Assembly: GCA_000247545.1 (NCBI GenBank)
Contig: CP003316.1
Coordinates: 2,203,233 to 2,267,232 of the forward strand
Length of the DNA: 64,000 bases
Direction: 5' to 3'
Source of the DNA: Pyrobaculum oguniense TE7
GTDB lineage: Archaea; Thermoproteota; Thermoprotei; Thermoproteales; Thermoproteaceae
Shown here: positions 34,301-41,812 of the stretch, piece by piece
Position numbering within the stretch: position 1 is the stretch's first letter
Layout of the letters: the number at the start of each line of letters is the position of its first letter
Made by a program: the position numbers and the translations under genes
Notes under the pieces: model-generated
What the model saw: only the letters and a program-made list of their open reading frames with translations
What the model was told of the DNA's origin: nothing
Databases searched by the model: none

Positions 34301-36148
34301 TTAGAGGAGGTACTGGAACTCTTCTAGACCGAGTCTCTTCAACGTCTCGTAGGTAGGCTTGCCGTCGACCCAGCCTCTCAGCTTGTAGAACTCCTTTATG
34401 CCTTCGTCGAACATTTTAGACGCTGTGTGGCCCTTCGCAGGGCCGGTCTTAATAGGCTCCCTCATCTTAGGCGGAAGCTCATCCTTAACCCACTTCCCCT
34501 CCTTCACGTGGAACAGCCTCTCCACGTTGAAGATGCGCTCTCCAATCGTCAACATCTCCTCAGGCGTGGTGTCCCAGCCGAACGCCGCGTTGAACAACTC
34601 GGCAATGTGCCGTTCGAAGATCCCATCTTTATCTAAAGTGTCGAATTTGCAGAAGGTAACAGAATCGGAAAGCGCCATGAGGTGCTGTGCGTATACAACC
34701 AGCCTCACCTGTTTCGAGATGCACTCAGAAGTCTCGCATAGCGGATCGACCTTCTCCGGCACCCCCAGCACCTCCCAAGTCGGCGAGTACGCCTCAAGGT
34801 GGTCGCCCCCACGGTTAGCCGTGACGTAAGATATGGCGAAGCCTTTAAGCGCCCTCGGGTCGTAAGCCGGGAAGCCCTGCCCCCTCGACCCCACAAAGGC
34901 GTCAGGCGCCCCATACTTGTTGGCCAGTCTCCAGTCGCCTTCTGCGAGGTCGCTTCCTATGCCGTCTCTGTAAGCCGTCTTGTACACCAAGTCGATCAAC
35001 GCCCCGGGATCGCCCCAGTCAATATCGTACTTAATCTTCCCCCTCTTTACTAGTTCTAAGAAGGTGCCCAGGGTATTGCCAAGCGAAATAGTGTCCATGC
35101 CTAGCTCGTTAGCCAACTTCTCCATTTTCAGCACAGCCTCCGTATTGGACAAGCCCAAATTACCGCCCAGAGCCCACGTCGACTCGTACTCGTACTTAAT
35201 CTTCTCGCCAGCAACCTTGTATGGGCCAGTTGTGACGACTGTCATCTGAGTACACTGTATGGGACATAGCATACATCCATGAGTTTCTTTTACATAGTTC
35301 TGCTTTATGTACTCGCCGCTTATCTTTTCGGCCTCCTCGAAATAGCCTGTGTCGAAGTTCCTGGTAGGGTAGCCGCCGATTGAGTTTATTATGTTCGTCA
35401 ACAGATTTGTGCCATACTGGTGTAGCGCTTTTGAAGTCGCGGCGTTCATCAACATCGTGGAGTACTCCGTAGCCACCTTGAGGAACCTCTGCCTGTCCAC
35501 GAACTCCCTCAGGGGGTCGTGAGTGCCCCACACCACAATGCCCTTCAGCTTCTTGGAACCCGCCACAGCGCCGAGGCCTCCGCGGCCTGCGAAACGCTCG
35601 TAGTCGCTGAACCTAAGACCCGCAATTCTCACTAGGTTCTCGCCGGCGGGACCTATGGTCATTACCCCTGCCTTCCTCTCATCGGGTTCAAACCCGGCGT
35701 CTTGGAGCAACGCCCTCGTGGCGGCGCCGGTCCACTTCCCCCATATGTGTTTGGCGGGGCGTATCGACACCTCGCCGTCCTTGACGAGTATGTAGACAGG
35801 CTCCTCGGCTTTGCCCTCCACGACTATGCCGTGGTACCCCGTCCTCACTAGCCAGTATGCGAAGTTGCCCCCAGCGTTGGAGTGGGTGTAGGAACCGGTG
35901 AGCGGGCTCTTGCCCACGACGTTTATTCTGCTTGTGGCTAGGTTGGCGGTGCCGGATAGGGGCCCCGCGAAGATGTACAGCTTGTTTGAGGGTGAGAATG
36001 GGTCTATGCCGCGGGGGAGCTCCTTGAGCATTAGGTAGGCCCCCAGACCCCGGCCGCCGAGGAACTTGCGGACTATATCATCTTTATAAACCTCTTCGCT
36101 AATTTTTTCAGTTGATAGATCTATGCGTAGTATTCTAAACACAACCAT
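34301..36148 (-). CDS. aor: Aldehyde ferredoxin oxidoreductase
   Basis: This 615-residue tungstopterin enzyme oxidises aldehydes to acids with ferredoxin as electron acceptor. The [4Fe-4S] ligands CMLCPIQC are near residue 291 and a fourth cysteine (ETSEC) near 475, matching the spacing in the Pyrococcus enzyme. The tungstopterin region SRINVVGKSPLTGSYTHSNAGG is intact. It supplies reduced ferredoxin for catabolism of peptides or sugars. The gene stands alone upstream of nadK, with an A/T-rich promoter region beyond its start. Confidence 0.95.
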   Translation of the reverse strand: MVVFRILRIDLSTEKISEEVYKDDIVRKFLGGRGLGAYLMLKELPRGIDPFSPSNKLYIFAGPLSGTANLATSRINVVGKSPLTGSYTHSNAGGNFAYWLVRTGYHGIVVEGKAEEPVYILVKDGEVSIRPAKHIWGKWTGAATRALLQDAGFEPDERKAGVMTIGPAGENLVRIAGLRFSDYERFAGRGGLGAVAGSKKLKGIVVWGTHDPLREFVDRQRFLKVATEYSTMLMNAATSKALHQYGTNLLTNIINSIGGYPTRNFDTGYFEEAEKISGEYIKQNYVKETHGCMLCPIQCTQMTVVTTGPYKVAGEKIKYEYESTWALGGNLGLSNTEAVLKMEKLANELGMDTISLGNTLGTFLELVKRGKIKYDIDWGDPGALIDLVYKTAYRDGIGSDLAEGDWRLANKYGAPDAFVGSRGQGFPAYDPRALKGFAISYVTANRGGDHLEAYSPTWEVLGVPEKVDPLCETSECISKQVRLVVYAQHLMALSDSVTFCKFDTLDKDGIFERHIAELFNAAFGWDTTPEEMLTIGERIFNVERLFHVKEGKWVKDELPPKMREPIKTGPAKGHTASKMFDEGIKEFYKLRGWVDGKPTYETLKRLGLEEFQYLL

Positions 36149-36331
36149 GAATTTATGGATTTATTCTCTTTTTAACTATTCTGTTCACAGACAAATTATG
36201 CGAGTGTTGCCTATGCATCGCAAATAGTTAGGTTTCTTAATTATACTTAATTTGCAACTTCTTCAAAATATTCTAAAACCTTTATACATGGTAATATAGT
36301 CAATATTAAAAGAGCCCTTTTCATTGGCCAC

Positions 36332-36727
36332 ATGGAATATCTTGTTTTAATGGGGGTGGTTGGATTGGCATGGCTAATCCTCGTAACTAGGGATAATATC
36401 TACGCATTTCTGTTGCTAGCGGGGTTAGGCCTAACGGCCGCTTTCGGCGTCTTTCTACACTTGGGAGAGCTTGGGTTTATACTCACGGCGCTTGTCTACA
36501 TAGTCGTCTCGCTTACCCTGGTCATTGTACCCGCCTCGACGCTTGGCGACGTACAGAAGACCGTAGAGATGAAGGCCGTAGCCCTGGCGGCACTGGCGTC
36601 CTTCGCCTTATTGCTCGCATTCCCGTCCGCCACCCCCCAGAAAGTGGCACAAGGCCTCGACCTCACAAATACTGCCCCTAGCCGCGGTGCTCGCGGCTTG
36701 ATAATAGCCTTTGAAATAACCACATGA
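36332..36727 (+). CDS. nuoJ: Complex I-like subunit NuoJ
   Basis: This is a 131-residue membrane protein of the NuoJ family with three or four hydrophobic segments (LVLMGVVGLAWLILV, FLLLAGLGLTAAFGVFL, GFILTALVYIVVSLTLV). It is a proton-path subunit of NADH/F420H2-type complex I. ATG 36332 is about 22 bases after AATATTAAAAG at about 36303-36312. It is the first gene of a nuo-like operon, and its stop overlaps nuoK. It is open here, but neighbours further along are damaged. Confidence 0.8.
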   Translation: MEYLVLMGVVGLAWLILVTRDNIYAFLLLAGLGLTAAFGVFLHLGELGFILTALVYIVVSLTLVIVPASTLGDVQKTVEMKAVALAALASFALLLAFPSATPQKVAQGLDLTNTAPSRGARGLIIAFEITT

Positions 36728-36960
36728 TCTCTCTCATCGTCTTCCTGGCCCTCATGGTCGGTAGCCTCGCAATCATAGCCACCGCTAGGTCTCTAGTCAG
36801 GGCGATAATAGGCGCAGAGGCGCTTACCCTGGCGGCGATATACGCCGGGGCCACAGCCGGTGGCCTAAGCATGGTCGCCGTTGCGGCCGCGGCAAGCGTC
36901 ATCGAGACTGTCATGCTAGTCGCCACGCTGTTCAAGCTGGCCAAGGGAGGCCATGTCTGA
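36724..36960 (+). CDS. nuoK: Complex I-like subunit NuoK
   Basis: This is a 78-residue membrane protein with three hydrophobic helices (SLIVFLALMVGSLAIIATA, RAIIGAEALTLAAIYAG, VAAAASVIETVMLVATL). It carries the conserved GAEALTLAA of the NuoK/MrpC family. It overlaps nuoJ by four bases and the NuoM-like frame by eight, so the operon is tightly coupled. Its length is slightly short of the usual 95-100. Confidence 0.8.
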   Translation: MISLIVFLALMVGSLAIIATARSLVRAIIGAEALTLAAIYAGATAGGLSMVAVAAAASVIETVMLVATLFKLAKGGHV

Positions 36961-38221
36961 GCCCTTCTACCTCCCCACCGTCTTGGCCACCCCACTTTCG
37001 CTGGCGGCTGTGAAGGCGGGGAGATGTGCCGTCGTTGCTGCTGTACTCTCCATGTTCCTCTTCGTGGTGCAGGTCAACTACTCCGCTACGCTCACGTCCC
37101 TCCCCTACCTTGGCGGGGTACGTGTCTCCGTGACGCCGGGCGTGATGTCGTTTGTCCTCACGTCGGTTGTCCTAGGGCTAATCGTCACGGTGTACGCTGA
37201 GAGGTATTTACAACATCTCAAGGCCGAGAGGTGGCACTACGCCGTCTAGTTGCTCTATGTCCTCTCCTTCGTCTACATAATAATATCCGAAAACCTCATA
37301 TTCGTCTTCCTGGCCCTGGAGCTGTCTATCATCACAAGCTACCTCCTCATCTGGTATTTTGGATACGGTGACAGGCGGAGAGTTGGGTTACTGTATTTCA
37401 TATGGGCCCAGATAGGCTCTATCCTTTTCCTGATCGGAGTCGCCATGTCCGGCACCTACCTCGCTGCTGTCTTTAAGGCGGCTGGGACGGCGTCTTTGAT
37501 GGTGCTGGTCGGGTTGCTGGTCAAGATGGGCACGGCGGGGGTCCACTTCTGGTTGCCCTACGCCCACGCCGAGGCGCCGACTCCCCCCTCAGCCCTTCTG
37601 AGCCCCGTCCACGCGGGGCTGATGGCCTACTGGCTCTGGCGACTCAGGGATGGGGCAGGCTGGCCGCTGGAGACGCTCTACCTCTACGGCCTGACCGCAG
37701 CCGTCTACGGCACCTCCCTCGTCTTCCGGGAGTCCGTAAATATGGCCTTGGCTGATTCGACCATCGCTAACATGGGCCTCCTCGTGGCGGCAGCGGCTGT
37801 ACAGAAGCCGGAGCTTAGTTACCTCGCCACGGCCGTGTTATTCGTGGGCCATGCCTTTGCCAAGGCCGCCGGCTTCATGCTGGCGGGTATCTACATCGTG
37901 AGGTTGCACACTGATCTCGACCAGCTCAAGTGGGACACTTGGGTCTTGGCGCTAGGCGTCCTCTCCTTCGTCACGCTATCCGACGTCTTTGGCATTAACC
38001 TGCTGGGTAGGGCCATGGTAGCGGTCGGCGTGTCCCAGGCCCTGGCGGCTATCCTCCTTATAGCTACGCTGTCCTCCACGGCTCTCTACAGCTTTTACCT
38101 CCTCCACAAGATCTACAAAGGCGGCCAAGCTGAGGTGCCCACGGACGGCGGGATGTACCTCTCGGCGTTGGCCGCCGCGGCGGCCCCCTTCATCATCCTC
38201 ATGGCCGTGTTCGCGATATGA
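36953..38221 (+). pseudogene. nuoM: NuoM/N-like antiporter subunit broken by an in-frame TAG
   Basis: One reading frame encodes a proton-translocating antiporter-like subunit, but a TAG stop at 37247-37249 divides it into 98 and about 323 residues. The sequence is continuous across the stop: LQHLKAERWHYAV, then LLYVLSFVYIIISENLIFVFLALEL with conserved LALELS and HFWLPYAHAEAPTPPSALLSP (the catalytic histidine/glutamate region). A TTG directly after the stop could restart translation, but the first half would lack the core. A mutation, a sequencing error or recoding are the possibilities. Confidence 0.8.
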
Positions 38222-38766
38222 CGCTTGAGCTCTGGTTGCTGGTCCTCGCCCTACTCGCCTTAACCGACCTCTTCCACTAAGAAGGGCATAGGCTCGCTGG
38301 TAGGCGGCGCAGCCACCCTCTACCTATACCTCACAAGGTCGTTGATGCCGGCGCCGCACCTCTCACACATGGGGGATCTCGCTCACACACTATATATCTT
38401 CATGTTTGTGATATATACCGCCGTCGCGGCCTACTCCATCTGGTACGCCAGCCATCTGGAGAGGAGGGGGTGGTTCTGGCTGTGGATGAGGGTGTTCTAC
38501 GCCTCCATGCTCATCTTCGGCGCCGCCGACCTCTGGCTTGTCTTGATAGCGGGGTGGGGAGGCCTCGACACTAGTGGTGCAGTACAACTGGCTACATATA
38601 CTTGGTGACGGCTATGGAGGCGCTGGTGGGGCTAATGATTGTAGCCGCCTTAGCCAACAAGTCGCTGGAGCCAATCGACATATCCATCGCCCTTACCCTC
38701 CTCCCGGTGCTTGTCTTAGTGGCGGCTAGCATAAAGTTGTTGCCAAATATAAGGAGGTGGTGCTGA
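38218..38766 (+). pseudogene. Frameshifted second antiporter-like nuo gene
   Basis: ATG 38218 overlaps the preceding stop (ATGA) and opens MTLELWLLVLALLALTDLF, ended by TAA at 38278. In another frame (from about 38280) the sequence continues KKGIGSLVGGAATLYLYLT. It then has MGDLAHTLYIFMFVIYTAVA, IWYASHLERRG and VFYASMLIFGAADLWLVLI with GWGGLD, the N-terminal half of a NuoL/NuoM-like protein. It ends again at 38606. A third stretch in the first frame from 38575 (TGYIYLVTAMEALVGLMIVAA) runs to TGA 38764. At least two frameshifts and a shortened C-terminus mark it as decayed. Confidence 0.75.
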
Positions 38767-38855
38767 GCAATGGTTTATTAGATTTGATTTCAAGTACAAA
38801 TTTATAATGATATAAATGTTAAAAACTTTTTCAAAGCTGAAATGAGCAGAGTCAT
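38767..38855. other. AT-rich spacer before the nuoB relic
   Basis: This 89-base stretch is strongly A/T-rich, unlike the surrounding GC-rich coding DNA, and contains GATATAAATGTTAAAAAC (about 38810-38827), a possible promoter. No coding potential is seen. Confidence 0.4.
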
Positions 38856-39289
38856 ATGGCTGATATTCTCAAGGTTGTTGACAGGTTGAGGAGTTGGGGG
38901 ACTAAGCGGTCGCTGTGATCTCCCCACCTAGTCACCGCCTGTTGCGGCGTCGAGTTCGGACACGCCTTCTACTCTGCTTATGACGCAGAGGCTTCGGCAT
39001 GCCTCCCATGGGCTCCTTGAGGCAGAGCAACATTATCGTCATCGAGGGTACTATTACGTTGAAGATGGCGAAGTTTGTAAAATATGTATATGAACAGATG
39101 CCGGAGCCTAAATACGTAATTGCCATGGGGGCCTGCGCGATTAAGGGCGGCGTCTTCTACGGGAGCTACCACATGGTGCCCGCCTCCAAGGTCGTCCCCG
39201 TAGATGGCTACGTCTCTGGCTGTCCGCCAACGCCCGAGGCCCTCCTCAAGGCAGTAAAGGAGCTCCAGGAGAAGATTGTCCATGCTTGA
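38856..39289 (+). pseudogene. nuoB: nuoB relic with a TGA and a frameshift
   Basis: NuoB carries the N2 [4Fe-4S] cluster of complex I. ATG 38856 reads ADILKVVDRLRSWGTKRSL, then TGA (38916-38918) where the family has tryptophan. Reading on gives SPHLVTACCGVEFGHAFYSA with the paired cysteines, then DAEA. One base is missing near 38993, after which the next frame gives GMPPMGSLRQSNIIVIEGT, YVIAMGACAIKGGVFYGSY and VSGCPPTPEALL. The remainder of the protein is well conserved. A TGG-to-TGA change and one deletion would explain both lesions. It overlaps nuoD. Confidence 0.85.
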
Positions 39290-40502
39290 CGAATGGCCTT
39301 TTAACTTGAGGTTCGGCGACACGTACTACGTGGAGAGGGAGGAGGAGCTAGTTGGCGGCCGCCGGGGTCTGACGCTTGTCGTCGGGCCGCAACATCCCGG
39401 ATCGGGCCACATGCGGATCTTCCTCGTGCTGGACGGCGACGTCATCGTAGACGCCTTCCCTGACCCGGGCTTTGTCCACCGCGGAATAGAAAAGCTGGCT
39501 GAGAACAGGCCCTACTGGACATTGATACCGTTGGTGGAGAAGGCCTCCATCATGGACAGCGCCAACATCATTTATCCCCTCGTGCTGGCGCTTGAAAAGA
39601 GTCTCGCCCTGGAGCCGCCGCCGCGGGCGAAGTATCTGCGGCTGATCATGGCGGAGCTTACGCGTATTAGGACCCACCTCTACGACTTGGCGCTTCTCGG
39701 CATCTTCCTAGGCCACTCCACCGCCTTTATGTGGGGGTTCGCCCTGCAGGACCTCATCGCCGAGGTCTTTGCCAAGATCGCCGGCGCCAGGACCACCACG
39801 GCGTACCTCGTGCCGGGGGGTGTGCGGAGGGATTTCAAGCCCGACCACGTAGAGCTTGTGGAGAGGCTGTTGAGGAAGGTCGAGGCCAAGCTCAACGATT
39901 TCAAGAATCTATTTTTGGACAACCCCGTGACAAGGGCGAGGCTGGAGGGGGTGGGCGTCTTGGACGCGAAGAGGGTGGCCGAGCTAGGGGTGGTGGGCCC
40001 CTTTGCCAGGGCCTCCGGCGTTGATTTTGACGTGAGGAGGGCCTATCCGTACGACGCCTATGCGGAGCTGGGCTACGAGCCGGTTGTGGACAAGGCCGGC
40101 GATGCTTGGGCGAGGACGTGGGTTAGGTGGGAGGAGGTGAGGAGGTCGATTGAGCTTGTGCGCAGGGCGCTTAGGGAGCTACCACAAGGTGACGTGATTG
40201 ACAGCGCCCTCCTCTTCAAAAACCCCGAGTACAGGCGGGAGGGGATTTCAGGTGTTATGGGCGTGTATACATACATGTACCCCGAGCCGGGCGAGTGGCT
40301 GGGCGTGGCCGAGGCTACGCGTGGACTCGCCCTAGCTCAGCTCTGGGCCTCAGGGTTGCAGCGGGTATATCGTATGAGGTTCGTCACGCCGTCGTGGCGC
40401 AACCTCCGTGCCATGATAGAGGCTATGAAGGGAGAGAGGCTGGCGGATATGCCTGCTGTGTACATGAGCTTCGGGTACTTCCCTCCCGAGGCTGATAGGT
40501 GA
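39282..40502 (+). CDS. nuoD: Complex I-like subunit NuoD (49 kDa)
   Basis: This is the 406-residue large subunit of the quinone-reducing module, related to [NiFe] hydrogenase large subunits but without the nickel-binding cysteine pairs. Diagnostic sequences are VVGPQHPGSGHMRIFLVLDG, PGFVHRGIEKLAENRPYW, ARTTTAYLVPGGVRRDF and the C-terminal TPSWRNLRAMIEAM. ATG 39282 overlaps the nuoB stop; a TTG at 39276 is an alternative. It is fully open while its expected partner NuoB is broken. Confidence 0.9.
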   Translation: MLDEWPFNLRFGDTYYVEREEELVGGRRGLTLVVGPQHPGSGHMRIFLVLDGDVIVDAFPDPGFVHRGIEKLAENRPYWTLIPLVEKASIMDSANIIYPLVLALEKSLALEPPPRAKYLRLIMAELTRIRTHLYDLALLGIFLGHSTAFMWGFALQDLIAEVFAKIAGARTTTAYLVPGGVRRDFKPDHVELVERLLRKVEAKLNDFKNLFLDNPVTRARLEGVGVLDAKRVAELGVVGPFARASGVDFDVRRAYPYDAYAELGYEPVVDKAGDAWARTWVRWEEVRRSIELVRRALRELPQGDVIDSALLFKNPEYRREGISGVMGVYTYMYPEPGEWLGVAEATRGLALAQLWASGLQRVYRMRFVTPSWRNLRAMIEAMKGERLADMPAVYMSFGYFPPEADR

Positions 40503-40505
40503 GCT

Positions 40506-40775
40506 ATGAAGGTCAGACTACTTGACCTAGATAGGGGCGGTGCGGTGGGGGTGGAGGTGGACGAGAAGGCGCACCCCATCGCGATAATCGATAAGTTGAA
40601 GGAGTTGGGTATCGTCGGTAGGTTCGAGACGGTTATATTCGGCGTGTCGCCCAACGGCCGCCAGGTGTTCTACGTACCTGCCGCCACGGTGGCGCAGCTG
40701 GTTGCATACAGCAACCAGACCAAGCAGCCGCTCTGCTTTAGGCGGTTCCCCATCCACGGCTACGGCAAGGGCTAG
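40506..40775 (+). CDS. Small hypothetical protein next to nuoD
   Basis: This 89-residue protein starts MKVRLLDLDRGGAVGVEVDE and ends FRRFPIHGYGKG. It looks like a small alpha/beta fold with AIIDKLKELGIVGRF and GRQVFYVPAATVAQLVAY. It is not recognised. It starts three bases after the nuoD stop and overlaps the radical SAM gene start by one base, so it belongs to the same transcript. A role with nuoD or with the radical SAM enzyme is possible. Confidence 0.6.
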   Translation: MKVRLLDLDRGGAVGVEVDEKAHPIAIIDKLKELGIVGRFETVIFGVSPNGRQVFYVPAATVAQLVAYSNQTKQPLCFRRFPIHGYGKG

Positions 40776-41812
40776 TGGTCCGCCCCATCTACAAAATAGG
40801 CCCGGAGACCCCCCTCGTTGGCGCGTTGGCCTTCGGCATAGTGGATCGGGGGACAAACGTCGTCGAGGTTAGGCCTACCAGCCTCTGCGCTCTGAACTGC
40901 ATCTTCTGCTCGGTCAATGCAGGACCTGCGTCTAGGACACGCTGGGCGGAGTACGTGGTGGAGCCGGAGCCCCTAGTCGCCGCGCTTGAGGAGGTGGTGA
41001 AGTACAAGGGGGTTGACGACGCCGAGGTGCACATAGACGGCATGGGGGACCCCGGCCATTATCCACATCTTGCCGAGCTGGTTAGGGGGGCTAAAACAAT
41101 AAAGGGAGTCGCCGTTGTGTCAATGCAGACCAGGCTATATATGCTCGACGAGGATAAGATAAGGGAGCTGGCCTCCGCCGGGCTTGACCGCCTCAACGTA
41201 AGCATTGACGCCTTGGATCCCTCCCTCGCTAGGAGACTCGCCGGAGCCGAGTGGTACGACGTGGAGAGGGTCCTGGATCTAGTGAAGAGGGCGCTTGAGG
41301 CTGGGATAAACGTGGTCATCAGCCCGGTGTGGGTACCTGGCTGGAACGACGGGGAGCTCCCTAAAATTGTAAAGTGGGCTTACGACAACGGGGTGGGAAG
41401 GGGCCTCCTCACTCCCGTGTTGATTCAGAAGTACATCCCCCACAAAAGGGGTAGGAGGGTGAAGACTAGGCCGATGGGATGGGGGGAGTTCTGGAAGAGG
41501 CTGAGGGTAATGGAGAAGGAGCTTGGGGTTAGGCTGGTGCCCGGGAGGGGCGAGTATAATATTCACAAAGCGCCCGAGTTGCCTAAGCCCCACGCCGTAG
41601 GAGAAGTGGTGGCCGTGGAGATAGTGGGCAGAGGCGTCTTCAGGGGGGAGATGCTGGCCACCCCCCTGAAAAGGAGGGGAACTGCCGTGTGGGATCGGGT
41701 ATTGACAGTCGCCTATGGCAAGGCGGCGTCGGACGAACTAGTTGGGAGTAGGGCAAGGGTAAGGGTGATTGAAAACAGACATAACATATACATTGCGAAG
41801 CCCATAGGCTAA
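40775..41812 (+). CDS. Radical SAM protein with C-terminal TRAM domain
   Basis: This 345-residue enzyme has the [4Fe-4S]-SAM motif LCALNCIFCSVNAG near residue 38, AEVHIDGMGDPG and LDRLNVSIDALDPS barrel motifs. A C-terminal beta-barrel region (VGEVVAVEIVGRGVFRGEML to RVRVIENRHNIYIAKP) resembles TRAM, an RNA-binding domain. The combination matches the archaeal COG2100 group and suggests tRNA modification, such as a methylthio- or related transfer, which is inference. GTG 40775 overlaps the upstream stop. Confidence 0.83.
   Translation: MVRPIYKIGPETPLVGALAFGIVDRGTNVVEVRPTSLCALNCIFCSVNAGPASRTRWAEYVVEPEPLVAALEEVVKYKGVDDAEVHIDGMGDPGHYPHLAELVRGAKTIKGVAVVSMQTRLYMLDEDKIRELASAGLDRLNVSIDALDPSLARRLAGAEWYDVERVLDLVKRALEAGINVVISPVWVPGWNDGELPKIVKWAYDNGVGRGLLTPVLIQKYIPHKRGRRVKTRPMGWGEFWKRLRVMEKELGVRLVPGRGEYNIHKAPELPKPHAVGEVVAVEIVGRGVFRGEMLATPLKRRGTAVWDRVLTVAYGKAASDELVGSRARVRVIENRHNIYIAKPIG

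What the first reader, a model, noticed from the sequence alone, without database searches (positions are those of the whole stretch)
36332..40502. Complex I-like operon caught in decay
nuoJ, nuoK and nuoD are open, but the NuoM-like gene has a TAG, the next antiporter-like gene has at least two frameshifts and a shortened end, and nuoB has a TGA plus a one-base deletion. No nuoA, nuoC, nuoH or nuoI is nearby. This looks like recent loss of a respiratory module, yet nuoD still looks selected.
Basis: partly seen in the sequence, partly recalled or inferred. Interest (0 to 1): 0.75.

Follow-up and report, generated by a model that had tools for sequence, protein, structure and literature searches.

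The report
Broken second complex I operon
In this heat-loving archaeon, a second copy of a respiratory proton-pump operon, the kind that relatives carry wrapped around a 2-oxoacid-oxidising enzyme, has lost its middle 7 kb and is falling apart gene by gene, while the main copy of the pump survives elsewhere in the genome; this is ordinary gene decay, caught in a usefully clear intermediate state.

Summary
The window matches the published Pyrobaculum oguniense TE7 chromosome length. Positions 36332-40502 are the wreck of the "fqo/oor" cluster described in Thermoproteus tenax (PMC3189178): a second complex-I-like set, J-K-M-L-N-[2-oxoacid oxidoreductase, 3 genes]-I-H-A-B-D. At least eight relatives keep it in the same gene order.

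One deletion of about 7.2 kb, with its junction at 38568-38575, joins the N-terminal stub of nuoL to the C-terminal half of nuoA. At least seven small disabling lesions add to it: J x2, M TAG, L +1, A +1, B TGA, B -1.

The proton-pump arm shows excess changes at otherwise invariant sites (32, against 8 in the soluble parts; relatives 59:59; p=0.0009). nuoD and the small gene after it look as constrained as in intact relatives. A second complex I survives elsewhere, spread over four loci, without NuoF. Another Pyrobaculum (G006) has lost the same cluster by different lesions. Sequencing error is very unlikely. It is a well-resolved case of decay in a known kind of cluster.

The parts
34301..36148 (-). 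Aldehyde:ferredoxin oxidoreductase family gene, divergent neighbour; intact; marks the left border of the cluster
   Evidence: 615 aa, 86-93% identical in five relatives and at the same border in G001, G002, G004, G006, G010; NCBIfam family match
36332..36727 (+). nuoJ (fqoJ): open frame, last transmembrane helix scrambled by compensating indels at about 36655-36700
   Evidence: 5 changes at 24 otherwise invariant sites
36724..36960 (+). nuoK (fqoK): open, full length
   Evidence: 3 changes at 19 otherwise invariant sites
36953..38221 (+). nuoM (fqoM) pseudogene: TAG at 37247-37249; one codon lost and D-I-K-R motif destroyed at 37733-37744
   Evidence: Pfam PF00361 on the 3' part
38218..38570 (+). 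nuoL (fqoL) N-terminal stub, +1 frameshift near 38275, cut by the deletion
   Evidence: residues 4-20 in one frame and 21-~118 in another, against L052 NuoL; DNA match ends at 38569
38568..38575 (.). Deletion junction: ~7.18-7.20 kb missing relative to three intact relatives (rest of nuoL, nuoN, oxidoreductase gamma-delta, alpha, beta, nuoI, nuoH, 5' part of nuoA)
   Evidence: DNA match jumps from L052 12319 to 5138, L053 11748 to 4567, L054 11425 to 4229; alignments
38575..38766 (+). nuoA (fqoA) C-terminal remnant, +1 near 38588
   Evidence: matches residues 58-115 of intact NuoA of 116; alignment
38770..38855 (+). AT-rich spacer with a conserved promoter-like element (CAAATTTAYAATGATAWAAA) ahead of nuoB; possible own promoter for B-D-small
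   Evidence: compared by eye with G002, G004, G010, G001 spacers; inference
38856..39289 (+). nuoB (fqoB) pseudogene: TGA at 38916-38918, -1 near 38990
   Evidence: PF01058 on the 3' part
39282..40502 (+). nuoD (fqoD): open, 406 aa, no cysteine, no excess of substitutions
40506..40775 (+). Small conserved protein (89 aa) that follows nuoD in relatives; open and constrained; function unknown
   Evidence: found after D in G001-G004, G007-G010, G012, G014; 0 of 18 invariant sites changed; no family match over a cut-off
40775..41812 (+). Radical SAM protein, intact; marks the right border in G002, G004 and G006

Best explanation
This is the decaying remnant of a second complex-I-like gene cluster (fqo/oor type) of P. 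oguniense TE7. When intact, as in relatives, it encodes a quinone-linked, proton-pumping core (J, K, M, L, N, H, A in the membrane; I, B, D as electron path and quinone site) with the alpha, beta and fused gamma-delta subunits of a pyruvate/2-oxoacid oxidoreductase encoded in its middle. The most likely function is to carry electrons from 2-oxoacid oxidation into the quinone pool (inferred). In TE7 the cluster became dispensable beside the other complex I. Shown here: the ~7.2-kb deletion, the seven small lesions, and excess change in the pump arm. Inferred: the pump arm relaxed first, the deletion ended any function, nuoB broke later, and nuoD and the small gene remain open because too little time has passed or because of a separate promoter and leftover selection.
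For: Conserved order J-K-M-L-N-ORcd-ORa-ORb-I-H-A-B-D in eight relatives, with split or partial variants in others; families assigned. The same clean deletion seen against three relatives, junction aligned. Lesions mapped. The cluster's NuoH type and oxidoreductase alpha type are absent from the whole genome; only one NuoH remains. nuoM relative rate 40 vs 13, p=0.0003; nuoD 10 vs 11. Pump vs soluble changes 32:8 vs 59:59, p=0.0009. Second complex I: A at 145773, B-C at 1136 kb, D at 2405 kb, H-I-J-K-M-L-N at 1481-1488 kb. Another species, G006, decayed at the same locus with other lesions.
Against: No close relative (P. arsenaticum, ~96% identical by PMC3558965) was available, so lesion ages and dN/dS at short range are not measured. 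nuoD remaining open is only weakly unexpected (p about 0.05 against the lesion density of the rest). No reads, transcripts or proteins were examined. The coupling of oxidoreductase to the pump is a proposal even for the intact cluster.
Confidence: 0.92

Rival explanations
1. The lesions are sequencing or assembly errors and the cluster is intact.
For: The genome rests on 454 reads, which miscount homopolymers (PMC3558965). A 1-base G-run difference in nuoD of relative G004 looks like just such an error.
Against: Two lesions are stop substitutions. The indels do not lie in long homopolymers. A 7.2-kb deletion is joined within coding sequence, and the missing gene types are nowhere else in the genome. 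Coverage was 59x 454 plus ~500x SOLiD. No frame breaks in ~6.9 kb of flanking genes. The excess of missense changes in nuoM cannot come from error.
Confidence: 0.03
2. nuoD plus the small 89-aa gene (and perhaps the radical SAM gene) are kept by selection as a separate unit, for example as a spare NuoD for the other complex I or in a new role, while the rest decays.
For: nuoD and the small gene have no lesions and no excess change. A conserved promoter-like spacer lies ahead of B-D-small, and in G012 B-D-small is a unit divergent from J-N.
Against: nuoB, its direct partner upstream, is broken. The other complex I has its own nuoD. In G006 nuoD and the small gene were lost too. Short elapsed time explains the same pattern.
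Confidence: 0.15
3. A reduced but working complex is still made, with missing subunits supplied by the other complex I and stops read through.
For: All missing subunit types except the oxidoreductase exist in the other complex I set.
Against: nuoM lost an invariant lysine/arginine motif and nuoB needs both stop read-through and a frameshift; cluster-type partners are only ~30-48% identical to most of the other set.
Confidence: 0.02

Closest known systems
fqo/oor cluster of Thermoproteus tenax (TTX_0203-0215; PMC3189178)
   Same: Complex-I-like genes with 2-oxoacid oxidoreductase genes in the middle, no F420-oxidising subunit, present beside another complex I set
   Different: Here the oxidoreductase, N, I, H and parts of L and A are deleted and J, M, L, A, B are disabled
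Other complex I set of the same genome (A; B-C; D; H-I-J-K-M-L-N)
   Same: Homologous subunits; no NuoF found
   Different: Mostly 30-48% identical to the cluster type (NuoB 60%), spread over four loci, has NuoC, all genes found are open
Membrane-bound sulfane sulfur reductase (MBS) of Pyrococcus, PDB 6u8y
   Same: Best solved-structure match of this NuoD (E=1.2e-60); NuoD-like subunit, not a [NiFe] enzyme (the MBS identification of 6u8y is from memory)
   Different: Gene set here includes NuoA, H, I, J, K, L, M, N of complex I type and an embedded oxidoreductase
Remnant of the same cluster in G006 (contig length as P. aerophilum IM2, from memory)
   Same: Same borders (AOR and radical SAM genes), same cluster lost
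   Different: Different lesions: one join from nuoK start to nuoD codon ~203, another from nuoD ~359 to the small gene codon ~61, a different nuoJ frameshift

Membership tests
fqo/oor-type complex-I-like cluster | Orthologous J, K, M, L, A, B, D in conserved order at the same chromosomal border | tested here: met
fqo/oor-type complex-I-like cluster | 2-oxoacid oxidoreductase genes (alpha, beta, gamma-delta) inside the cluster | tested here: not met
   Deleted; cluster-type alpha absent from the genome; hence a degenerate descendant, not a working member
fqo/oor-type complex-I-like cluster | Complete membrane core with NuoH, NuoN and uninterrupted NuoL/NuoM | tested here: not met
Pseudogene cluster | Disabling lesions plus relaxed constraint relative to intact orthologues | tested here: met
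   lesions in J, M, L, A, B; excess change in M; not shown for D, K only suggestive
Group 4 [NiFe] hydrogenase | Cysteine pairs binding NiFe in the large subunit | tested here: not met
   The 406-aa NuoD has no cysteine
NADH-linked complex I | NuoF (NADH-binding) encoded in the genome | tested here: not met
   No PF01512 match in the genome

The most novel reading that the evidence does not exclude
nuoD and the small 89-aa protein after it have been freed from the dead complex and are kept by selection as a separate unit (exaptation of a complex I subunit).
Probability: 0.1. Interest if true: 0.55.

Novelty: new member of a known kind. Interest (0 to 1): 0.38.

Why it matters
The 2-oxoacid oxidoreductase embedded in a complex I cluster was called unprecedented when found in T. 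tenax, and I found no test of how it works. TE7 is a natural loss mutant of that cluster in a cultured species with a still intact second complex I, and a second species lost it separately. Comparing electron transfer from 2-oxoacids to quinone in membranes of TE7 and of a relative with the intact cluster would test what the cluster does. It also suggests a stepwise order of loss, pump arm before quinone-site subunit.

Tried and rejected
Maximum-likelihood branch dN/dS for nuoD was run but synonymous change is saturated on the TE7 branch (branch length at its bound), so omega there is not used; relative-rate and invariant-site counts were used instead. A scan of genome contigs with nuoD found nothing usable although close relatives exist, so that collection seems to leave this group out. 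The P. arsenaticum accession is not held. A search of ~400 genomes of the phylum for the cluster-type oxidoreductase beta found 59-66% relatives outside the family; six loci inspected are not next to complex I genes, apart from weak ferredoxin-like matches. The small protein was folded without an alignment: mean pLDDT 55.8, not interpretable. A hydrogenase reading was rejected (no cysteines). A shared ancestral decay with G006 was considered: their nuoJ lesions and deletion ends differ and they are not sisters in the border-gene trees, though those trees disagree with each other.

Full report
Identity of the window. Names of the other handles rest on my memory of genome sizes and are leads only: G006 P. 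aerophilum IM2, G010 P. calidifontis, G003 P. islandicum, G009 P. neutrophilum, G016 T. tenax.

What the intact thing is. The window's NuoD is one of two in the genome. Its orthologues in relatives sit in a cluster of fixed order: J, K, M, L, N, then 2-oxoacid oxidoreductase gamma-delta fusion, alpha and beta, then I, H, A, B, D and usually an 89-aa protein. Pfam and NCBIfam confirm the antiporter-type subunits, NuoH, NuoB, NuoD, the iron-sulphur protein I, a below-cut-off NuoA match, and a pyruvate/2-oxoacid oxidoreductase of the PorA/PorB/PorCD type. T. tenax carries such a cluster, described in 2011 as fqo/oor with the open question whether the oxidoreductase feeds the membrane complex directly (PMC3189178). 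In a sample of about 400 genomes of the phylum, close relatives of the oxidoreductase beta outside this family are not next to complex I genes in the six loci inspected.

What has happened in the window. Against three intact relatives, window DNA follows nuoL to 38569 and resumes in nuoA at 38571-38575, with 7.18-7.20 kb of the relative skipped. The junction alignment shows the nuoL sequence ..GGAGGCCTCGAC and the nuoA sequence CTAGTGGTGCAGTAC.. side by side. Independent small lesions: nuoJ has compensating indels that scramble its last helix; nuoM has a TAG (His in the relatives aligned) and has lost the D-I-K-R motif; nuoL and nuoA each carry a +1; nuoB has a Trp-to-TGA change and a -1. nuoK, nuoD, the small gene and both border genes are open.

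Relaxation by part. Counting changes at columns invariant in all other taxa, TE7 has 32 of 274 in the membrane genes and 8 of 323 in B, D and the small gene; eight relatives pooled have 59 and 59 (Fisher p=0.0009). nuoM alone has 40 TE7-only against 13 G002-only changes (p=0.0003), nuoD 10 against 11, the AOR border gene 12 against 15. The five nuoD changes at invariant sites are conservative (L46I, V58A, E270D, L326M, T357S). So the pump arm relaxed earlier than the quinone-site subunit, or nuoD is still constrained. Absence of lesions in nuoD and the small gene, given the lesion density elsewhere, has p about 0.05, so it does not decide between these.

What is left in the genome. Another complex I set is present: A at 145773, B and C at 1136 kb, D at 2405 kb, and H-I-J-K-M-L-N at about 1481-1488 kb. 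No NuoF was found. Two further alpha-type oxidoreductases remain at 52% and 42% identity, so the genome keeps other enzymes of this kind.

Parallel loss. G006 keeps the same border genes but only a frameshifted nuoJ, nuoD codons ~203-359 and the end of the small gene, joined by two deletions with other end points. Its nuoJ lesion is not shared with the window, and nuoK, nuoM, nuoB and a full nuoD survive in some form in the window, so most of the loss was separate. G005 has no second NuoD and no cluster-type NuoH or oxidoreductase alpha, though it is a draft.

Error as explanation. TE7 was sequenced with 59x 454 and about 500x SOLiD. The stops are substitutions, the indels are not in long homopolymers, flanking conserved genes are unbroken (p about 2e-4), and the deleted gene types are missing genome-wide. 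By contrast G004 nuoD differs from G002 by one base in a run of G, which does look like an error.

Verdict. Shown: a real, multi-lesion wreck of a known but rare cluster type, with a defined deletion. Inferred: the order of events and the function of the intact complex. Not shown: the age of the loss and whether nuoD is still used.

Noticed in passing
G000 (TE7) C1:2405248 and C1:1486600; L050, L051: In TE7 the other complex I's nuoD and nuoH, adjacent in G004, G006 and G010, are about 918 kb apart; nuoD is now followed by a chorismate-pathway gene on the other strand.
   Followed up: partly
window 40506-40775: An 89-aa protein with no family match over a cut-off follows nuoD in ten relatives and stays constrained here; it could be an unrecognised part of the complex (the cluster has no nuoC).
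   Followed up: partly
L052:3200-3330: nuoD of G004 has one extra base in a G run, shifting its last ~30 codons into the frame of the small gene; probably a sequencing error.
   Followed up: yes
window 36235-36255 and upstream of nuoJ in G002, G004, G006, G010: A conserved element close to AATTATAYTTAATT lies between the divergent AOR and nuoJ genes, even in the decayed G006 locus; possible shared promoter or operator.
   Followed up: no
L045:5600-8400 (G012): In G012 the J-to-A part and the B-D-small part are divergent units, so B-D-small can be a separate transcription unit.
   Followed up: partly
L076:6617-8113 (G008): In G008 about 1.5 kb of extra sequence lies between nuoN and the oxidoreductase gamma-delta gene, where the others have about 0.1 kb.
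   Followed up: no
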